DNA of 64,000 nt. Source: Rhizophagus irregularis (lineage: Eukaryota; Glomeromycota; Glomeromycetes; Glomerales; Glomeraceae). Positions 6,200 to 38,949 of the stretch are shown piece after piece (the stretch's first letter is position 1; every line of letters begins with the position of its first letter). A program made the position numbers and the translations under genes. The notes below the pieces were generated by a model. The model ran no database searches. It had not been told where the DNA came from and saw only the letters and a program-made list of their open reading frames with translations. The stretch is from assembly GCF_026210795.1 (NCBI RefSeq), contig NC_089450.1, forward strand, positions 1,488,001 through 1,552,000. Reading direction: 5' to 3'.

Positions 6200-8056
6200 C
6201 TAATTTAATAAATTGCAAATTAAATTACAATTGAAACCAGCCGCGAAAAATACTTCTGGTTTATTTCTAGGAAATAATTGACCAGAATATGAAGTATTAT
6301 CCGCTGATTTAGATAATGATGGATAAACTTCTATCATGCTATCATCATTTATCATACGAACTTTATGTTCGTCTTTAGTTAAATGTAATCTAACTTCAAA
6401 AAATGAATAAAGTTGTGGAATGTCTTGAGTATTATTATTATTATTATTATTTATACATAATTTACATCCGAAAACTCGTTTATTATTTAATCCCCCATGA
6501 AGGAATGCACCACAAACTGTATCAATAGGAGCGGGATAATTTTTTAAATATAATGCTTCTTCCCGAAGTTGTGGTATTAAAACACTCATAAGAAAATCAT
6601 CATCCCAAAGAATTCTTGGATCTTTATTCACAAATGGGGGATTCCGAAATGTAGGACACCAAGGTAAATATTTTATCAAAAAATTCTCAAATACGAAATT
6701 ATTATTATTTTTAATTTGATTCCCATTTTCTGAAGGTTCATTATTATCAGAATCTGAAGATGTATTTTGTTGTTGTTGTTGTTGTTGTTGATTTACAGTA
6801 GTATTTGTAACTGTATTAGAAAATTGTCGTTGTTCACCTTCAGGTCGTAATAATTCAAAGATTGTTTTAACGATATCCATTTGACGTGTTTGAATTGCAA
6901 CATCAGGGGATAAATGTCTTTCAGTTTCTTGTCTTTGCATTCTTAAAGATGAGAATAATTGTGTATATTCAGGAATTAATTTATTACGAAATCCAATCCA
7001 TGCACGTTCGGTGAAAGGACTCGTAGAAGTTGACATCATTGCTTTATTATAAGTAGAACATTGTTCAACGATAGACATTTTAAATCTTGGAAATCCGTAT
7101 TCATTCTTTTCCTTTCTAATTAAATAATCAATCATTGAAGCTCTATCATCTCGTTTTTTTGAATTTTCCATTGTTTTAGTCCAATATTCATTTTCATGTT
7201 CAATCTCTCTTTTAACAACTTCTTCCATTTTAATTTTGCCTTCTTCACGTTTTCTTTTAATCCATTCACGTCTTCCATTAACATCTAATTTTATATATTC
7301 AGCATATGTATCATTAACATTTTGTATCCAATATAAATTTGCTGGTCGATGTTTAGGACTTCGATCCCATCCAGATTTATAAAATCCTGTAGTAAAAGTT
7401 AATCCACTAAGAAAATCATCGGGAATCAAATTTGGGGATTGTAAATGATGTCGAATTTGATCTAACCTAAAAGTAAAAAAAAAAATGAATTTATCAATCA
7501 TGTGATTTACGGGAAAAGTTTCGGAACATCCGATTTTGACAATAATTTTCACGCATAAAAAAAAAAATTTTTTTTTTTTTTTATGATTTGAATGGACACT
7601 TTTTTTTTTTTAAAAAAAAAAAATCTACCAAATTAGAAAAATGAAACAATGTATAAAAAGAAAAATTATTTACCTAATTGTTCGATCTTCTAAACATTTT
7701 CTACAACATCTTACAAGAAAAGCCCAATAAACTTTTCTTATTCTGGGTTTTTTACAAAATTGACAACCTCTTTCGGTAACAAGTTTAACATATTGTAATT
7801 CCATCATACCTTCAGGGGGAGGCATTTGAACGAAAGGTAAAAATGTCAAACGTGAATTCTTCCATATTTCTTGAGTTGTAGTTGAATTTGTTGAACACAA
7901 GTATGAATAAAATTTTTTACAAACTCTAGCGAGCGAAAGAAGATCTGTTGGTGGAAGATCCTGACATATATTTATAAAAATTTCCGGTGGAATTTGTGTA
8001 GCTAAACAACGACCTTGAACAGAGTTTAATGACTGATAGGAAAATTCGGTTTCCAT
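6200..8056 (-). CDS. F-box-like protein with Cys cluster and C-terminal C2H2-like finger
   Basis: Two exons: 8056-7674 and 7466-6200, with a 207-bp intron (GTAAAT...TTTTAG), give 549 residues. Residues 21-53 (IPPEIFINICQDLPPTDLLS and on) form an F-box-like helix set. C98, C101, C117, C118 and C121 make a CxxC...CCxxC cluster with KVYWAF between. A charged, probably coiled-coil middle region is followed by a CAA-encoded Gln run, Asn runs, a YLPWCPTFRNPPF motif and a CKLC...HLTKDEH finger-like end. F-box proteins usually recruit substrates to SCF ubiquitin ligases, and that role is inference here. The close paralogue at 36508-38949 has the same domain order and the same phase-2 first intron. 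The 5' side (8060-8180) is GAAGA-repeat rich. Confidence 0.85.
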
Positions 8057-11032
8057 CTTTATTATTGAGAAGATTGAAAAGATTGGAAAGATTGGAAAGA
8101 TTGAGAAGAATGAGAAGTATGAGAAGAATGAGAAGAATGAAGAATGAGAAAAATAAGAAGAATGAAAAAGAAGAAAAATTTTATTTTATGTAAAAAGGAA
8201 AAAAATTTTCTTTAGAAAAAAAAAAAAAATTTTTTTTTAAAAAAAGAAAAAGAAAAAGAAAAAGAAAAAATTTAAAATAAAAAAAAAAATGAAAGGATTG
8301 TGGGTTAATTTATATAAGTCTGTCGACTGTCAAAAAAAAGACACAATAACACGAATTATACAAAAAAAAAAAAAAAGATGTGTATTTTATATATATAAAA
8401 AGATAATATAATCGACAAATCTTTTATGGCGCAATAATAATAATAAAAAAAAAATTTTTTCAAGACAAAAACGAGTTATATTTATACATAAAAAAAAATT
8501 ACAAGATATAAAAAAAGACAATATATGATGATATAAATGTCCTATTTGAAGTTACATAATTGTTCGTACGATTTGACAACCTTTCATTTAAAAAAAAAAG
8601 ATCAATCCGAGAAATCGGTTCATTAAAAGAATTTCAGTCCAAATTTGGAAAGTATAAAAAATTATTAAATGCTTACAATGTACATATATAATAAAAAAAA
8701 ATTTTTTTTTTTACACGAGACCTTTAAATGACTTTCATTCAAGGTTGTGAAACAAAAAACTGACTAGAGAAATCACTTAATCTCGTGAAGTCTGATCCGA
8801 TCTACAATTACAATAGAAAGATTTTTATTCAATTGTCAAGCGAATATATAAGTTTATTGAATAGATTTAACTTTTTTGATCTTCTTTAAAACCGGTTTTG
8901 AAATAAAGAAACACGCCTTCAACATTTGTTCAATTCAATTTTAATATTGTTTCTCAAGCCATCAGTTTCATTAATTACATAATTTTTTTTAAGGGAAAAA
9001 AAAAATTTTTATTATTTTTTTTTTTATTTGTTTTTTCTTTTTTTATTTTCTTTCAATATTTTTTGGAAATTCATTCTTGGCGCAAAAGTTTATGTTCCTT
9101 GGGATCGGTTTATAAAATATACATAAATAGACCAAATGGAATAAATGGAATGATTATAATAAAATAAATAAAATAGAATCAGTAATTAATTTCTAATTCT
9201 AAAGTAATAAAGTTCAAAATCCCCCGTTGTACTATAAACCTTCTTGGAATTCAATGAAATCTTTTTTTAATCAATTAAATAGCATTTCTCTATAGAAATT
9301 GATTAATGAAGTGGCTTGACGTAATAAACATGTATATGTATTAAATTACATGAATGGCTGTGCAGTTAAATACACATAATACACACTAATGTGTTTCATA
9401 AAAAGGAACAAAGGATGAAAAAAAAAAAAATTTTTTTGGTTTAACCCTTTTTGAAATTCTGTCACATTAAATTTATCCTAACTTTCGGTAACCATGGTCC
9501 AAGAACCAATTTAACCAATTTATTGTCTTTTATATCTTTTGTCCTCCTCCGAAATAATTTTTTTTTTTTTTGAGCAAAGCCACACTCAACGTAAAGCCAC
9601 AAAATTAACAATATTAAGGATAAAATTTTTAAATATTGTACGTGATTACATGTTTTATATATTGTATATATTTTTAAAGTTGAAAATCATTATAATATTT
9701 TTGTAACATGTAAATTAACAGACTTGGTAATTATTTACAAATACCCGGTTTTAAAGTTGTAAAAGAATGGCTTGGCTCAATCGGATTACCCAGTTTAATC
9801 AATCATTAATTTATGATGATCTTATTACTTAATAATCCTAAATATAAATCTTAAAACATGTTAATTGAGATTATTAATAGATTTTGATCTTTGTATCTTT
9901 GTTCTGGTTCTGTTAAATTTGTTTAATTGAAATGGTAAAGAAAACGCGAGGCGTAGTATTGTGATATATTATGTTTTTACATTAACACCACTTTTTAGGT
10001 GAATTTTTAATGTTGTGTCACATTAAATATGAATTTCTTTCCAAGTTCGTGTAATATTGAATTACTATAAATAAAATTCTTTGACAATAGACATTTTTTT
10101 CTTTTATATGAAACTTTTTTCGTAAATTATTATAAAAATATTTATGATAATTAAAATTGGTGATCAGAGAACAAATTCATATTGGTTTATGATGTACCAT
10201 TAATTTATTTTTATGATTTTTTTCTTACTCCGATTGAACTTGCTGCATTTTAAATTGGTTCAAATGTTTTTTTTTTTATTTTTTATATATAAAATTTCTC
10301 CCCAAATGAGGTATACAAAGATTAATTAATTTCTTTCCTTTAATTATATTTAATATATAAAATAATCTTATATATCCATTAAACAGTTTTTTTCCCTTAA
10401 TTATGCATTTATAATCATACAACATATTTTTAAGCTACAATGGAATAATAATTATACATATAAATGCAATTTACGCAATTTACGCAGATAAAAGGCGCTT
10501 TTTTTCTTTATTGATGTTACCTCATAAAAAAAAAAAAAATCAGGTTTGGATAATGTCTCTTATGGTTATCTAGAACCTGTTGTGGATCTTCATGAATAAT
10601 ATAGCAAAAGAAAGGGATACCTAATTTGGATTCATGATATAATCTCAATCTGCTGATATTTATAGTTTTAGGTAAAGTGTGTCTGATATCTGTGATCCGT
10701 AAAATCCATATAAATCTTTATGTTTTACGTTGCCATCTATTTTGGCTGAATCTTTGAATTATGATTCGTCTTTTAATAAACTGCGGAAAAGTATTCTATT
10801 GGCTATCATGTATTACATTTATTACATTTATTACATGTTACTTCACATGTCAATGTCAATTTTGATTCATTAAAAAAATGATCGGTGTTAAGGTTCACTA
10901 AATCCGGTATTTTTATTTTGAATCAAATCAGTTTACTAATTTAACCTTTCCTTTCCGCCTTTTTTTAAACAACCTTTTTTGACACTTTTTTTTGCTCCTT
11001 TTTTGATCTTATTCTTACTATTTAATGAGAAA
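8057..11032. other. Intergenic region
   Basis: Divergent promoter region between the F-box-like gene (-) and the membrane-protein gene (+). It contains GAGAAGAAT-type repeats (8064-8180), many A and T runs, and one solitary element end (AATTTTTAATGTTGTGTCAC at 10001-10020) matching the inverted repeat of the element at 21528-21736. No exon chain is seen. Confidence 0.65.
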
Positions 11033-17621: not shown

Positions 17622-19004
17622 ATGTCAAATAATAAACTATTATCAAACTTTTCTTTAAGAATCGGTAAACTATTAGATGATGATGATGAATTTAATACGA
17701 CCATTTTTGTTGGGGGTAATAAATCATCATCAATAATAAAAACTTTTAAAGCACATTCTATTTTATTAAAAATTAATTCTTCATATTTTGAGAATGTTTT
17801 GAAGAATGATAATAATAATGAATATACGAAAAAGATTTATTTGGAAAATATTTCCCCTCCTGTATTTGAAGTAATACTAAAGTAGGTTTTAGGTTTTGCA
17901 AAAAAAAAAAAAAAATTTCTCCTTAATCTCATCGTTTATTTTACTGATTTTATCTTTTAATATTTTTTTTTTTTTTTTAGATTTATGTATACTGGAAAAA
18001 TATCTATGGAAAATAGAACTAGGGATGATATAATCGAGCTTCTCGAAGCTGCGGAAGAACTAAAATTGGACGAATTATCGGAATTTTTACAAGACCATCT
18101 CATGCAAAAAAAAGATTGCGTCATCAATGATAACAATGATAACAATGATAACACACAAAATTTGTGTCATGTGACTAATAAGCTGTCGCACAGCAACAAA
18201 CGCGGAAATATCCGACTTGTTGGTGCAGGACCCGGTGATCCAAAATTATTAACACTTTCCGCGTATCAAGCAATTCAAGAAGCTGATTTAATATTATCCG
18301 ATAAACTTGTATCTGAAGAAGTATTAGAATTGATTCCAAAACATACTGAAGTTTTTATTGCTGCAAAGAAATTTTGTGCTAATGTTGAAGCCGCTCAAGC
18401 TGAACTTAATCGTGTTGGTCTTGATGCTTTAAATCTTGGAAAATATGTTGTCAGATTAAAGCAGGGTGGTAAGTAATAATTATAAAAAAAAAATTGTTTT
18501 TTTCTTTTTTATTCTTTCGAAATTTTCTTATGAGTTTTTTTTTTAGATCCATTTTTATTTGGTCGTGGTGGAGAAGAATTTCTCTTTTATCAATCTCATG
18601 GTTATATCCCACAAGTAATTCCTGGTGTTTCATCATGTATGTCTGCTCCATTATTAGCAAATATTCCTGTTACACATCGGGGTGTTGCATCTCAATTCCT
18701 TGTTTGCACGGGAACTGGTAAAAAGAATACCATACCGGAAATTCCAGCTTATAATCCAATACGTACTACTGTATTTTTAATGGCTTGTCATAGAATTAGA
18801 GATATAACCAAAGATTTAATGGAGAAAGGTAATTATCCGTCAGATTGTCCTTGTGTTGTAATAGAAAAAGCGAGTTTTATGGATCAAAGAGAAATAAGAG
18901 GAACTGTGAGTACTATTGCTGATATAATAGATAGAGAAGGTCATACACCACCCGGAACATTTGTTGTTGGACATGCTTGTACTGTTTTATCAAAACAATT
19001 ATAA
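17622..19004 (+). CDS. BTB/POZ domain fused to uroporphyrinogen-III C-methyltransferase
   Basis: Three exons (17622-17881, 17981-18468, 18547-19004), both introns GT-AG with in-frame joins, give 401 residues. Residues 10-130 are a BTB/POZ fold: TTIFVGG, FKAHSILLKINSSYFENVL, YTKKIYLENISPPVFEVILK, FMYTGKI, and helical IIELLEAAEELKLDELSEFL. A (NDN)n linker (135-150) leads to a complete SUMT domain (160-401): GAGPGDP at 168-174, SDKLVSEEVLELIP, RLKQGDPFLFGRGGEE around 245-260, IPGVSS, IPVTHRG, CTGTGKKN, TVFLMACHRI, and a VVGHACTVL end. SUMT adds two methyl groups from SAM to uroporphyrinogen III to make precorrin-2, for siroheme used by sulfite and nitrite reductases. Fungal Met1 proteins normally carry a precorrin-2 dehydrogenase-like part in front of SUMT, not a BTB domain. 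BTB end, linker and SUMT start lie in one uninterrupted exon. Q248 and K in SDKLV differ from the common GGDPF and DRLV forms. Confidence 0.85.
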
Positions 19005-28831: not shown

Positions 28832-31800
28832 TCATTCATAAGATATACAAGTATTTACCCCTTGAATGGGCTCATTCACCAATTCTTCTTCTTCGTCGTG
28901 CCGGATTAATATAAAATCTCGTCGTTCAGCGGCATATATGGTATGGATTCTCAACATCGTTCCGTATAAACTAGAAACCATTGGAGGAGGCTCCTCAGGT
29001 ATCTAGTAAAGATTTAATTCTTTTAATAACCAGCCATATTTTTTGTATTAACAAAATTAGAGTACCTTATTGGGCATGAAAATTTCTTCGTTCTTAATGT
29101 ATCTAGCCTTCCTTGTACCAATGGCTGCCATAGCTTCATGCCAAGCTCGAAGTGCACTAAATTTGCAAAATTTAAGAATTAAATTAATTAAAAATAATTT
29201 GAATTAATAATTGACCTACCGTTCATTGTTTTGACTTTGGCTTATATCTGCTAAATTATCTGTAACATTTACGTATAGCAAATAATCCCAAGGAGCATTT
29301 TGTGTTTTTAGTTGCTAATTAATGGATTAATACAATTAGATAAAAAAATAATTTTATGAAGTAATTAACAATTAGTCGGATAAAAAATAATATTACATAA
29401 TCAATAACACTCATGATTCTACTAGAGACTTGTTCTTCTTGTAGAAACGTATACGTAGTAACCGTTAACATTCCTCCTATATAATTGAACACTGCATTAG
29501 AGAAATTCACATACAATATTTTATAAATTTACGTACCTTTCGGTAAGTGTTCCTTAAAACGAATTGGTTCAGGAGATTCTTTCAAATCAGTTCCAAATAT
29601 AAGAAATTTGCAATTCAATAGTCTTTTAAAATCCATAAAATTGCGCATAAAGAGTAATTGTTTCAAAAATAAAAGGTGGACCTAATTAATAAAATAGTTA
29701 GTAATCATGGGAAAGCTAAATATGTATATAATGATATTAGATAAACAATTACAAAAACGAAAGAAATATTTCCGCTATAACTTTCTTCATAAATTGCACC
29801 CAAAACTTTCATAGCTAAGAGCAATTCCTGAACATCGGGAAATTCCTCATTGCCAAAACATGTAAAATGAATTGTTTCTTCACAAGTTCTCAATAATTGT
29901 AGTAATTGAGAATAATATCCGGTTTGCCGGAGGAAAACTTTCGTTTTAACTATTCTTTCCACTGAAAATCTATCATCATTCGGCAATATTAAAGGATCCG
30001 GCTCAAAATTTAACGGTAAAGGATCAAATCTTGGAGGCACAGATATAGAGACCGCAAACAACTTTAACTCCTTTTTATCTGGTAACTTCAAAAGGTTGCA
30101 TATTCTATCGCAATAAGGAAAGATAATCCACGCCGTTTTATATTCTTCGAACCAAATCATTCCAACCTGTGAATAAAGTATTAATAAAATATCATACTAT
30201 AAACAAGTATAAAAAACGATTCAGTCATACAATTTTACTTCGCATCATTATTGTTTTTTCCACCGAAACATTGTGTCTTGATTTTATAGATTGCGACTGT
30301 TTTATTTCGAATACCGAGTATTTAGAACTCTCTTTATCTTTAATTAGATTTAATGCATATGACAGTGGTATAGAATGCTGAATGCAAAGTTCTGGTACTT
30401 TTTCGTTCGCAATTTTTTCTCTACAGTATAAAATTTTTAGTAAAAATATTAAATAAAATAAACAATAATATTAACTTACAGCGTTGCTACATTGCCACAT
30501 CTTCCGGGAAATGGTGTGATATTTACAGAAGCAACAAAAAGAACCAATGACCCTTTAATTATATTACCTGTCCATATTATATTGCTAAAAAAAAAATCAG
30601 TCAAAGTTATTTAAAACAGATAAGAATTCTCAAATAGAAATTTACCTGTTAATTGAAAGATTTCTGCTCAATTCTACAAACAGTATTTAAGTATTATCCG
30701 ATATTAATATGTGAAAAAAATTTTCTTTCATAAATATTTTTCTTACCATTATTTTCAGCAGAATGAGATTGCATGGAAGATGATGTAGTCTCTGATGATG
30801 ATTTATTAAGAGCCGATTTTGGTGAATCTTTACTTTGCAATTGCACTCTTTCAACTCTTGATTGTTGTTGTGGCTGCGCCACAAAAGTTTCAGTTCTTGC
30901 GTCAAGCTTATTTTTTCCTCTTTAAAACAAAATAATAATAATTAAATAACGATAACTTTTTGTGATAAAGGAACCAAAAGAATAAAATTTAATTTACTTC
31001 GCCGATGATGATGATTCAGTGACTGGCGCTTTAGAAGTTACAATATTATTATCTATTTAAGAGTACATATATAAATAAGTGGTGTGGTTTCTTTGTCAAA
31101 TTTAAATGTGAACCTGAAAAAGCTAACTTGGTTCAAGATTATCTTTGTTTTCAGTTATTGCGGCTACTTTAAGAGAAGCTCGACGATTTTTTCCATAACG
31201 TATAGAGTTATTTGTGGTTAGGTTCCCGGCAACTTTGTTTTGCGGCTTTGATTGGGTTCACAAAATTTTGCTTCAATTTGAAATTCATCAATTTAATTAA
31301 ACATGATACTATTTACTTTTATTTACCTTTTGTAAAATCCGATCATCTGAAGATGTAGCAGAATTGTGAGGTTCAACATCTGATCCTGATCGAGAAAACG
31401 ATTCGATATGAGAGTATGGACTAGATTGATCACAAGATTCAATACAAGTTATGGAAGATTGAACATGGGAGTTATACGAGGGCTTTGATTTATCATATTT
31501 GAAATAATCGGAATTTGTTGAACTTTGATAATCATTTTGACTTGTATAATTATTGCCAGTATCAATTTCAATTTTTTTCATCGCATTCTCTCTTATCCAA
31601 TATTCTCGGATAAGTTGTTTACATCCGGAAATATTATTTTCTGGAAGCCATTGTGGTTTTGTCATGTCTATATTAAAGAGGAACAATTTATACAATATAC
31701 CTTGAGGGAAATAAGTTGTAATTATACATTCATTACCTTTAAATCGTATTAAATACCAAACATGTAGTTCTTCGTTTTTATGATCTATGACTTTTTCTGC

Positions 31801-32017
31801 AACTTTATGTCTGCGATTAGGATCTTCTGATGCACGAGGTAAATAAGTTCGTTGAAGACTAATTTTTTTTGAAGAAACATGCAGTTTACATATGTAGATT
31901 TAAACGTAATTGAAAATTATCGTAAATTGACTTTTAAAAAAAAAATATATATTACTGTGTGGTTTTTTTTGGTTTTTTAATTGATGATTTGCCGTTCTGT
32001 TTTTTTAATCTGCCCAT
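28832..32017 (-). CDS. Chp1-like chromodomain protein (heterochromatin/RITS-type)
   Basis: 15 exons on the minus strand: 32017-31956, 31858-31737, 31667-31327, 31245-31128, 31052-30998, 30919-30747, 30673-30646, 30584-30480, 30420-30231, 30166-29753, 29681-29537, 29491-29397, 29314-29220, 29156-29066, 29002-28832. All junctions stay in frame and give 734 residues. Residues 38-85 are a chromodomain (KVAEKVIDHK, WYLIRFK, QWLPENNISGCKQLIREYW). Residues 90-290 are Ser/Gln/Asn-rich and probably disordered. Residues 300-620 (NIIWTGNIIKGSLVLFVASV onward, with WFEEYKTAWIIFPYC) look like a SPOC-type barrel, followed by a folded tail. Chromodomain plus linker plus SPOC-like C-terminus is the plan of S. 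pombe Chp1, which ties H3K9 methylation to the RNAi complex RITS. The family call is from layout, not alignment. Cage residues look substituted (see findings). The exon 4 donor (GTTAGC) is weak. Confidence 0.75.
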
Positions 32018-34586: not shown

Positions 34587-36507
34587 ATAATTTGTTATTT
34601 TGTACTATTCTACAAAAGATCCGATTAAAGTAGATAACCGACAATTAAAAATAAAAAGGGTTAATTATTTTTGATATAAATATGGAAATTACGTAATGAT
34701 TTTTAATACGGGGAAAAGAATTTTTTTTTTTTTCGTTAAAATCGATTTGTAAATCTTTTTCATCCCTTTAAATTGACGGGATTTGTCAATCTATTAAGGA
34801 TAACATTTTGAATACAAATACTTTTTTATGATAAATACCAATTTAGATCCTAAATTAGACGAATATCGGAAATAAATATTATCGTCAATGAATGATTTCT
34901 GGGTTTAATTAAAAAAAAGATTATGAAATTTCATTCTAAAGAGATCATCAGTTTTATTTTCAGAGGTTATTGATAAAGAGATAAATAAATATGGTTTATC
35001 ATTAGAAAGAAAAAATTTTTTTGTATTATTTGTTATTTGAGACACAGAGATATTTTTAGTTTAGTTTTTGATAATATAAAAATAGGAAATCAGTAAAGTC
35101 ATGGGCGTGAGAAGAAAAAAAAAATAATTTACTTGATTTAATTCTTGGATAAAGTACTTTTAATAACACATTGTAATATATAATCAAAGATTAAATTCAC
35201 GAGGAAGAAATGAATATGACGCAGAACTAAATTCGAATTGCGAAAAAAAATTTTAAGGTTTAGAATTCAGAATTCATGGACTATTTGAATATAATTTATT
35301 ATTCACATGTTTATCGAAACAAAGAAATTATAAAAATAATAATAAAAATAAATAAATAAAAGAATCATCTAATATGCCCATACCGCACATATGATTCAAC
35401 GTTGATTGTTGTGGGAGTGTCTCTCATGCAAATGCAAACAAAATGGTTAATTTGAAATTAGTTACTTGTAACTAAGTCTGTTTCCAAAGATTTGGAAATG
35501 TGACGCCTTTCATGAACTTTTCAAATAAATCCGAATAAGGTTCAATTATTTAACAAAGTCAAATATAAATAATAAAGATAATTCCGATTGAGAAAATATT
35601 TTTTTTTAAACAAATTTAGATGGTATCACGTGATTCTTTCTTTCAAGAGTCCTAAATTTGTTTGGGAAAAAGTTGAAAAAAAAAATAGTATTAAAAAAGA
35701 TTATCATGATATTCAGTTGAAATACCTTTAGAGGTTTATATTGATTTCATAAATAGTAAAATGTTTTCAATCATATGACAACTTTGTTTGCATCCAATAA
35801 TACTGCGCCATCACAACGAAATTGTTAGTACGGAGCTAACAACAGTTTAACTAAGTTACATTGTGTTACTGTTTGCTTGCGTTTAACCAATAGATAAAGT
35901 TTGTAATGAATTTAATATTACAACATTGTTTCCGAACTTGGTTTTGTACTTCGTTTGAAGATTAGTTACACTCCGATGACATGATGACAAGCTAAATATT
36001 ATTTTGATCGACGAAATTTTCATCAGGAACGGACTAATTAAAAAAAGTTGAGTTTCGTAGTTTCGTTTCATTCATTTATTCAATAGAACCTTCTATATTG
36101 GTCATTTGACTTTATTTGCTAATACCTCATTTTGTGTATACGTACATATATATACATTTATTTCCTTTTCATGATAAACAAATGAAAAAAGTTTCTCCGT
36201 TTTCTTCCCCCATAATTATTTTTTTTTTTTCCTTTTATCAAAAAAAGTTATATCACCCCTTTGATGAATCAAGAATCTCTGTTGTGTTACGGTTTTACTG
36301 CGCCTGAATCGTACAACGTTGACGGACAGAGCCCTAATTGAGGGATTTTTATTAAAACTTGTTTTAACAGGAATTTTTCTTTTTTATTCCCTTTTGTAAA
36401 ATAAGGAGGATGAAAGTTCATCTCTTTCGAATATTTTTTTCTTTTTGAAAAATTGTTTTATTTATTTCTTAGTAATTGGTTTTTTTTTACAGTGTAAATA
36501 TTATAAT
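34587..36507. other. Intergenic region
   Basis: AT-rich sequence between two plus-strand genes. A possible 5'-UTR intron (splice-like TTTTTTTTTACAG at 36480-36492) precedes the next start codon. No mobile element is recognised. Confidence 0.5.
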
Positions 36508-38949
36508 ATGGGTCGTCAAGGTGGTGGAAAAAAACAGAAGGTAATAGTTGGACGATGTATATTTACTACTATTCCTCCAGAAATGTTTATAAATATATGT
36601 CAAAACCTTCCTCCCGTTGACTTATTATCTTTGGCTCGAGTATGTAAAAGATTTAATGGATTTTTAAGTGCAGAAAATTCAATGACAACTCAAGAAATTT
36701 GGAAAGCATCTAGAGAAAAATTTTTACAATTTTTACAAATACCACCTCCAAATGGTATGACAGAACGTCAATATGTAAGATTGGTGTTGGAAAGAGGATG
36801 TCAATTTTGTGGAAAAACCAAAATTCGGAAAGTTTATTGGGAATTTCTTGTACGTTGTTGTGAAGATTGTTTAAAGGCAAGAACCTTAAGGTATAAGTTA
36901 TTCAATTTTCCCATCAATGTATTTTTAAAATTTTATTCTAATCTTTATAATGGATTTTTTTTTTCTTTTAGACAAGAAGATATTAGACAGGATATTATGC
37001 CAAATGTTTTAAGGGCTGATGATGTACTGTCAGGATTGCCTTTCATTCCATCTTGGCATAGAAGAGCATGGGATAGAGGAACAAAGAATAGACCTTCTAG
37101 TCTTTATTGGACTAAGGATGTTATAACTGCTTATGAAGAATATCGAAAGATTCCTGATTATCCATATGAACTCAAAAATCAGTGGGTTAAAAAAAAGAGA
37201 GAAGAAGGTGCGACTAGAATGAGAGAGGTTATTGAAAGAAAAAAGGAAACTGATAAAGAATTAAGGAATAAGATTCATGAAAATTCAATAAAAAGAAATG
37301 AAAGAGTACTACAAGTTCAATCCAAAATTCAAGAAATGAAATCGGAAAAAAATGAATATGGGATTCTTAAATATGATGAAAATCTAACAGAAACTGCTAC
37401 TTTCAAAAAGGCAATGAATTATATGAGTCGTAAGTCTCCACAACCTTTCACGGATCGTGCTTGGACTTTGTTGAAAAAAAAATTGATAAAGGAATACAAC
37501 GAATTATCTAAAGAAAAGAGACGACAACGCGTTGAAAAAGAAAAATGCTTGCCAAAGGATACTATAATTCAAATGAGACAATTTGATATTTATCAAACAG
37601 CCAAACAATGGATTCCAGATTCTGAAACTGAGAAAAAGATGGATAAAATTGAAATTGATGCGGCTGAATCCGCCTTTACTTCGACATCCACCTTGGAAAC
37701 TTCGTCTAATATAATTCCTGATTCAACAACTTCGACTTCAAGTTCCAATGTTTCGATTATAAATAACGAATCGATAGCTGACAACAATATGACGAATGAT
37801 ACAACTCCAGTTAAGGTAGAGGACACAACTTCGTTGTCCGACTTTGCACCTACCAAAGTTGAAAATACAGCTGATACTAATACTATCAAAGTTGAAGTTG
37901 GAGACACTTCTATGAATATTGACAACGTAACTTTAACTTCTGATAATACTCCTATGAAGATAGATAACTTGATTTCGACGTCAAATACCGTTTCTATGAA
38001 TGTAGATATATCTGATACCACCTCGGCCAATGTTGATGATTTGACTTTAATTTCCCAGGATTATTTGATGTATTATCAGATACCTGATCCTTTTTCTTAT
38101 TCTAATGATAATAATGCATCGTATAGTACAGGTAAGCACAAGAAGTTCTTTGAATAATTAAAAGTATTATTTGATTTAATTTATTATAACTATACCTTTT
38201 ATGTAGACACAAATTCTGTAATGTCAATCGATTCTTTAATATCACACGATACATCGGATTTTTCTTTTAACCTTGGATCGACATCTGCTGCAGCTTCAAA
38301 TTCAACATTAGGGCCTGTCTATACTGATTCAGTATTTTACGATGATCCAATGGATATTGTTGATGTTGATCATTATGATCCATATGCTTGGGATGATTAT
38401 TTTATATGGGATCATCCTTTATTTGTCTCTGCTTCAACCGCAAATTCTAATGTTCAACAAGATGAAAACAGATTTTATGTTGAAAAATATTTACCTTGGT
38501 GTCCATCTTTTAAGAATCCTCCTTTTCATGATGGTAATCCCTATAATTTATGGGATGAAAACTACCTTATGAAGACTTTGATGCCGCAAATTTGGTGTGA
38601 GGCTACACATTTATTAAATAGTTTTAGTCAGGCGACAACTGTACAGGGTGCAGTACTTGGAGGTTATAGAGAGAATAATATGTTTAAATGTAAAGTATGC
38701 GTTACGGAATTTGCAAAAGAACAAAGACTTATCTATGATACCAAAAAATTACGTTCTTATAGAGATGTAAGATTACATTTGATTGAGTTTCATGAAATTA
38801 GGAGTATAAATGATGATGAAATGATTGAATTTGTGCCTGATTTTAATACTAGTATATCTCCTGATCCTGTGTTTAATAATGACATTAAAAGGAAGTTATT
38901 TGCAATTGGATTTAATTTTAATTTATTGGATGATTTAGTCAAATATTAA
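36508..38949 (+). CDS. F-box-like protein with Cys cluster and C-terminal finger (paralogue of 6200-8056)
   Basis: Three exons (36508-36890, 36972-38131, 38207-38949) give 761 residues. The start at MGRQGGGKKQK is chosen because the stretch before it is hydrophobic UTR with a splice-like ACAG. IPPEMFINICQNLPPVDLLS is the F-box-like part. CQFCGK...VYWEFLVRCCEDC is the Cys cluster. There is a basic coiled-coil middle (KRNERVLQVQSKIQEMKSEK), then a Ser/Thr/Asp-rich insert with imperfect repeats of 'TPVKVED', 'APTKVEN' and 'TPMKIDN' type, which makes this copy about 210 residues longer than its relative. The C-terminus repeats the YLPWCPSFKNPPF motif and a CKVC...HLIEFH finger. Exon 1 is 383 nt in both genes, so the first intron position is conserved. 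A ubiquitin-ligase adaptor role is inferred only. Confidence 0.87.

What the first reader, a model, noticed from the sequence alone, without database searches (positions are those of the whole stretch)
17622..19004. BTB/POZ domain fused to a complete siroheme uroporphyrinogen-III methyltransferase
One gene model encodes a full BTB domain, an Asn/Asp linker and a full SUMT domain. The 488-nt middle exon contains the end of BTB, the linker and the start of SUMT without a break, so the fusion is in the DNA and not in how exons were joined. Known fungal Met1 enzymes have a precorrin-2 dehydrogenase-like N-terminus. A BTB domain would instead allow self-association or coupling to a Cul3 ubiquitin ligase, which would put siroheme synthesis, and so sulfite or nitrite reduction, under protein turnover control. 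I do not know of this pairing being described. Caution: a branch-like TGACTAAT and a CACAG acceptor at 18172-18193 could let the SUMT part also be spliced from elsewhere.
Basis: partly seen in the sequence, partly recalled or inferred. Interest (0 to 1): 0.88.

Follow-up and report, generated by a model that had tools for sequence, protein, structure and literature searches.

The report
BTB domain fused to siroheme-pathway methyltransferase
In several arbuscular mycorrhizal fungi, an enzyme predicted to start the making of the cofactor siroheme carries a protein-pairing BTB domain that the relatives seen outside this group lack; the fusion is real and old, no description of it was found, and what the added domain does is not yet known.

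Summary
The gene is real: three exons (17622-17881, 17981-18468, 18547-19004) encode 401 residues, with an N-terminal BTB/POZ domain, a poorly conserved linker and a SUMT with its known active-site motifs. It is no annotation accident: of 307 proteins listed in three searches, 10 (8 species, all Glomeromycotina) carry the same BTB plus SUMT, and BTB (46-60%) and SUMT (65-83%) are conserved on either side of the linker. The fused BTBs group together, so one capture is likely. They resemble the fungus's own BTB-BACK-TLD genes and share an intron with them (same codon, same phase). In Paraglomus occultum the same SUMT lineage has a different BTB type (T1/KCTD-like), if its gene model is right. 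Best reading: a Met1-lineage SUMT that lost its dehydrogenase-like half and gained a self-associating module. No paper on the fusion was found in the searches made. New variant of a known kind.

The parts
17622..17881 (+). exon 1: residues 1-87 in part (N-terminus and first part of the BTB domain)
   Evidence: splice model; matches the N-termini of orthologs
17882..17980 (+). intron 1, phase 2, inside the BTB domain; same codon and phase as the intron in BTB genes of the same genome
17981..18468 (+). exon 2: end of BTB, linker, start of SUMT
18111..18194 (+). Asn/Asp-rich linker, residues 131-158; 3.7-21% identity in 9 of the 10 orthologs compared, 46% over 13 residues in P0007
   Evidence: residues 138-164 of the ortholog model P0002 have pLDDT under 50
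18195..18468 (+). first part of the SUMT domain (from residue 159) with GAGPGD, D194, K216, Q226, R245, K247
18469..18546 (+). intron 2, phase 1, inside the SUMT domain
18547..19004 (+). exon 3: rest of SUMT (GRGGEE, THRG, VFLMA motifs) and stop codon

Best explanation
A Glomeromycotina isozyme of uroporphyrinogen-III methyltransferase. It belongs to the Met1-type fungal lineage (called clade A here), lacks the dehydrogenase/chelatase-like N-terminal half, and in its place has the BTB module of the fungus's own expanded BTB-BACK-TLD gene family (with that family's intron). Shown: the fusion, its conservation, grouping of the fused BTBs, presence of known SUMT active-site residues, a second enzyme with all siroheme-synthase domains in the genome. 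Inferred: the SUMT half still makes precorrin-2 for siroheme; the BTB pairs or clusters the enzyme, standing in for the dimerising module that was lost (in CysG both halves are homodimers); the C31 enzyme completes siroheme. A role of the BTB in recruiting Cul3 is possible but secondary.
Against: No transcript, protein or activity data; enzyme activity and BTB pairing are inferred. Single departures in orthologs: D173 is N in P0008, K216 is R in P0008 and N in P0011, H293 is F in P0011. NirE H161 seems to be T here (by spacing). The N-terminal 24 residues of the model, where the first BTB helix lies, have pLDDT under 50. One R. irregularis record (P0010, 236 aa) reads out of frame within SUMT, an error or a broken allele. 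Two of 13 Glomeromycotina records (P0007, P0012) have no BTB called; P0012 begins inside the last BTB helix, so its model looks cut, P0007 cannot be judged. The BTB tree sampled few of the paralogs, from this genome only, and is unrooted. Cul3-like genes are present, which leaves the Cul3 rival open.
Confidence: 0.57

Rival explanations
1. Cul3-coupled enzyme: the BTB binds Cul3 so that the SUMT itself, or a partner in siroheme synthesis, is ubiquitinated and its level set by turnover.
For: Cul3-like genes are present: three neighbouring cullin loci on C8; the first coding piece of one matches human-type Cullin-3 chains at E 6e-28 against E 9e-8 for Cullin-4. BTB/Cul3 complexes are inferred as ancestral in eukaryotes and reported in S. 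pombe (PMC2785787, passages). PDB matches of the BTB include SPOP and KEAP1 (their role as Cul3 adaptors is recalled). T1/KCTD proteins, the Paraglomus type, also include Cul3 binders (recalled).
Against: No BACK after the BTB (present in the two relatives tested), and a poorly conserved, probably flexible linker follows directly. The phi-x-E motif (recalled) is not evident at its expected place in the window protein (by eye). The C31 enzyme carries no BTB.
Confidence: 0.25
2. The SUMT half is no longer chiefly an enzyme but a receptor for SAM or a tetrapyrrole, and the BTB passes the signal on, for example as an E3 adaptor or scaffold for sulfite/nitrite reductase.
For: A second enzyme with all siroheme-synthase domains makes the enzyme role redundant on paper.
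Against: The NirE-based residues checked are kept in the window protein (H161 apart), and SUMT is the best-conserved part; two SUMT genes also occur in Mucoromycotina where the clade-A enzyme keeps its full form.
Confidence: 0.1
3. Gene-model artefact or transcript alternative: SUMT is mostly made without the BTB, from an internal start (near M128) or by splicing to 18194.
For: In-frame alternative acceptor, the only such match in the CDS; two public models without a called BTB (P0007, P0012).
Against: Same order in 8 species, with record names that suggest more than one annotation project; BTB conserved between fused proteins; acceptor weak; P0012 starts within the BTB.
Confidence: 0.08

Closest known systems
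Fungal Met1 / siroheme synthase of clade A (e.g. Aspergillus, Candida, Mucoromycotina, Basidiobolus)
   Same: SUMT half is of this lineage; these rows are 39-45% identical to the ortholog P0002 in the alignment
   Different: NAD_binding_7 / Sirohm_synth half is missing and a BTB domain stands in its place
Stand-alone SUMT of Mortierella and kin (about 260-360 aa)
   Same: clade-A SUMT without dehydrogenase half
   Different: no BTB; whether it and the Glomeromycotina form share one loss of that half is open (not together in the best tree; held together p-AU 0.191)
C31 siroheme synthase of the same genome (CysG-like, clade B)
   Same: has a SUMT domain
   Different: has the dehydrogenase/chelatase domains too, no BTB, other clade
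BTB-BACK-TLD proteins of the same genome
   Same: BTB 33-42% identical in the ten best non-self matches, with the same phase-2 intron in the intron-bearing copies
   Different: followed by BACK and TLD instead of SUMT in the two tested
T1/KCTD-like BTB fused to the same SUMT in Paraglomus occultum (P0011)
   Same: SUMT half 64% identical, same order
   Different: BTB_2 (PF02214) type; 31-52% identical in its best piece to 7 of 8 T1 loci of the window's genome; a weak direct match to the window BTB also exists (29%, E 1.8e-4 for one subject sequence). Swap, separate fusion or strong divergence; gene model not checked in DNA

Membership tests
uroporphyrinogen-III C-methyltransferase (SUMT) | match to curated family model above cut-off | tested here: met
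   cobA_cysG_Cterm 207.1 vs 185 bits
uroporphyrinogen-III C-methyltransferase (SUMT) | active-site motifs (GAGPGD, D, RxK, GRGGEE) | tested here: met
   window protein; positions after passages of PMC4731766, mapped by spacing
uroporphyrinogen-III C-methyltransferase (SUMT) | methylation of uroporphyrinogen III to precorrin-2 | not testable with these tools
   needs enzyme assay or complementation
fungal Met1 with dehydrogenase-like N-terminus | NAD_binding_7 / Sirohm_synth domains N-terminal to SUMT | tested here: not met
   absent from the 401 aa; present in C31 enzyme
fungal Met1 lineage (SUMT phylogeny) | SUMT groups with clade-A fungal enzymes | tested here: met
   clade-A side 95/78 (not starred), inner A fork 98/94 (starred)
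BTB/POZ domain | Pfam BTB above cut-off | tested here: met
   64.5 vs 20.5 bits
BTB/POZ domain | BTB fold | tested here: inconclusive
   model folded; fold searches were filled by SUMT structures
BTB/POZ domain | self-association | not testable with these tools
   single-chain model only
Cul3 substrate adaptor | BACK domain after the BTB | tested here: not met
   no BACK; two relatives have it. Some Cul3 adaptors lack BACK (recalled)
Cul3 substrate adaptor | phi-x-E motif / 3-box (recalled) | tested here: inconclusive
   by eye on the alignment only
Cul3 substrate adaptor | Cul3 present in the genome | tested here: met
   cullin matches on C8, C28, C31, C32, C3; a C8 piece is Cullin-3-like, C32 Cullin-4-like, C28 Cullin-1-like; C31 and C3 not typed
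Cul3 substrate adaptor | binding to Cul3 | not testable with these tools
   needs pull-down

The most novel reading that the evidence does not exclude
Glomeromycotina put one of their two SUMTs under a BTB-based assembly or Cul3 ubiquitin-ligase system, and did so with two different BTB classes (POZ in most lineages seen, T1/KCTD in Paraglomus): the SUMT works as an enzyme and as a SAM/tetrapyrrole-sensing receptor, tuning siroheme and so sulfite and nitrite reduction during symbiosis.
Probability: 0.16. Interest if true: 0.8.

Novelty: new variant of a known kind. Interest (0 to 1): 0.6.

Why it matters
It is a conserved, apparently unreported change to a housekeeping cofactor enzyme in major plant symbionts. 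It suggests that the expanded BTB family of these fungi has donated its module to metabolism, gives a clean test of what a bare BTB does on an enzyme (dimer, chain or E3 link), and the Paraglomus form, if confirmed, offers a natural domain swap. Siroheme is needed for sulfate and nitrate assimilation (shown in Aspergillus fumigatus, PMC6240589, title and passages), which matters for what these fungi deliver to plants.

Tried and rejected
Artefact of exon joining or assembly: rejected, because records from other genera have the same order and BTB and SUMT are conserved while the linker mostly is not. Alternative splicing to 18194: weak acceptor, common pattern in the window; not excluded without transcripts. 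Several independent captures of the POZ-type BTB: not supported, fused BTBs are one side of a branch (16 sampled paralogs of one genome, unrooted). Shared loss of the dehydrogenase half with Mortierella: neither shown nor rejected. Fold searches were filled by SUMT structures, so the BTB half was not tested by fold; BTB rests on sequence. Paper searches: searches returned 0 papers; some searches returned listings in which I saw no mention of the fusion (one search lists papers on BTB expansion in these fungi). Of the listed papers I read passages only, in PMC7018833, PMC4731766, PMC6240589, PMC9453076, PMC2785787, PMC7550596. Glomeromycotina not listed with a clade-A protein (Acaulospora, Funneliformis, Ambispora, Geosiphon, P. 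brasilianum, R. clarus): lists stop at 120 rows and go by length, so absence is not claimed. One search is not exhaustive: a diphthine synthase, also TP_methylase and expected in any eukaryote (recalled), is not among its three matches.

Rows dropped or chosen: one search kept 16 of 21 own-genome BTB loci (those giving at least 95 residues) and 8 fused rows (second records of the same species left out); one search used 86 hand-picked rows, with 9 of the 14 Glomeromycotina clade-A sequences (13 records plus the window protein). The 11 loci were picked because their match or 37 broke at the intron place; the donor lies at the same codon and phase in 12 of 12 copies, a fitting acceptor was found in 10 of 12 (not for the second copy in L020, nor L028). 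An earlier script used a looser pattern and hit wrong places in L028 and L030; one search replaces it. Ten other BTB loci (L006-L011, L031-L034) have no intron there.

Full report
What the window is. It lies at G000:C22:1488001-1552000 of a 146.7 Mb assembly in 32 contigs. The best protein match is a Rhizophagus irregularis record, 97% identical over the full length, so I read it as that fungus or a very close one.

One search tests the splice sites: exons 17622-17881, 17981-18468 and 18547-19004 give one 401-aa frame (three other combinations at intron 2 also stay open, 400-405 aa). Pfam finds BTB at 40-130 and TP_methylase at 166-373, both far over cut-off; NCBIfam names the second half uroporphyrinogen-III C-methyltransferase above the curated cut-off. 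Sequence matches in the PDB are SUMT/CysG and related methyltransferases for the second half and BTB proteins (NACC1, SPOP, PATZ1, KEAP1 and others) for the first.

It is conserved. Among the 120 rows listed (of 7452 matches), 13 are Glomeromycotina records of this type from 11 species. Ten records (8 species: R. irregularis, Diversispora eburnea, D. epigaea, Cetraspora, Dentiscutata, Scutellospora, Entrophospora, Racocetra) carry PF00651 plus PF00590. One (Paraglomus occultum P0011) carries PF02214 plus PF00590. Two (Glomus cerebriforme P0007, Gigaspora rosea P0012) have no BTB called; P0012 starts inside the BTB's last helix. Re-scanning all 307 proteins listed by the three searches with the window BTB and the Paraglomus T1 domain finds these 10 and 1, nothing else at E 0.01. 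Identity to the window protein: N-term+BTB 46-60% in the seven records with much of a POZ BTB, 26% in P0011; linker 3.7-21% in nine rows and 46% over 13 aligned residues in P0007; SUMT 64-83%. A chance BTB would not be kept like this beside a mostly unconserved linker.

Origin of the two halves. In a tree of 86 SUMT domains the fungal enzymes split into a side with the window protein, Ascomycota, Mucoromycotina, Basidiobolus, Mortierella stand-alone SUMTs and some others (clade A, 95/78, with an inner fork 98/94), and a side with the C31 enzyme (clade B, 95/91). The letters A and B are mine. Some chytrid and Coemansia/Kickxella/Smittium proteins found with the C31 query fall on the A side. Glomeromycotina A, Paraglomus first, are one side of a branch (94/89; not starred). 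Mortierella A is one side of a branch too; holding it together with Glomeromycotina A is neither preferred nor rejected (p-AU 0.191). So the dehydrogenase-like half was probably lost in the Glomeromycotina line, perhaps together with Mortierella, perhaps apart.

The BTB search of the whole genome gives 160 matches, exons counted apart and this gene's own two included, with only 150 of 1789 candidates scored. Two sampled relatives continue into BACK and TLD (L007, L025). In 11 of 11 intron-bearing loci checked the intron sits at the same codon and in the same phase (2) as intron 1 of this gene; ten other sampled loci lack it. The fused BTBs of eight records are one side of a branch against 16 sampled paralogs (99/97). 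This fits one capture of a BTB exon pair, intron included, from the BTB-TLD family. Paraglomus has a T1/KCTD-like domain instead, 31-52% identical in its best piece to 7 of 8 T1 loci in the window's genome: a replacement or a second fusion, if its gene model is right, which I could not check in DNA.

What the BTB does. In CysG both halves are homodimers (PMC7018833, passages). Replacing a dimerising N-terminal half by BTB, a homodimerisation domain (so called in PMC9453076, passage), suggests assembly of the enzyme; with SUMT itself dimeric, closed dimers or chains are both possible. Cul3 recruitment is possible: BTB-Cul3 complexes are old (PMC2785787, passages), and the genome has three neighbouring cullin loci on C8, of which one was typed as Cullin-3-like, beside a Cullin-4-like gene on C32 and a Cullin-1-like gene on C28. 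Against it, no BACK domain follows.

Novelty. BTB expansion in these fungi is known (PMC7550596, PMC9453076, passages). Five searches for BTB with siroheme, uroporphyrin(ogen) or tetrapyrrole methylase, or siroheme with Glomeromycotina, returned no paper in an open-licence library; subscription papers are mostly not covered. I rate it a new variant of a known kind.

Noticed in passing
P0011 (Paraglomus occultum): Same SUMT lineage fused to a T1/KCTD-type BTB (PF02214) rather than the POZ type, a natural domain swap or second fusion if the gene model is right.
   Followed up: partly
G000:C31:2531597-2532232 (L001): Single open frame with all CysG-type domains, the only other TP_methylase gene that one search found in this genome (the search is not exhaustive).
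   Followed up: yes
G000:C8:2628369-2641458 (L039, L040, L043): Three neighbouring cullin loci; one typed as Cullin-3-like, the other two look alike by eye. A tandem Cul3 set beside a large BTB family would be worth a study of its own.
   Followed up: partly
window 7673-8185 (-) and 36400-38154 (+): Two open frames with F-box domains, another ubiquitin-ligase adaptor family near this gene.
   Followed up: no
G000:C3 about 3.4-5.6 Mb, C8 586-594 kb, C16 3.02-3.14 Mb: Dense arrays of BTB matches; in the loci checked the break near residue 88 is an intron.
   Followed up: partly
P0010 (R. irregularis record): Its reading frame changes within SUMT right after GDPFL, so this record is truncated; assembly error or a real broken allele, not resolved.
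   Followed up: no
window 31312-31899 (-): Weak chromo-domain match below cut-off, perhaps a retroelement remnant.
   Followed up: no
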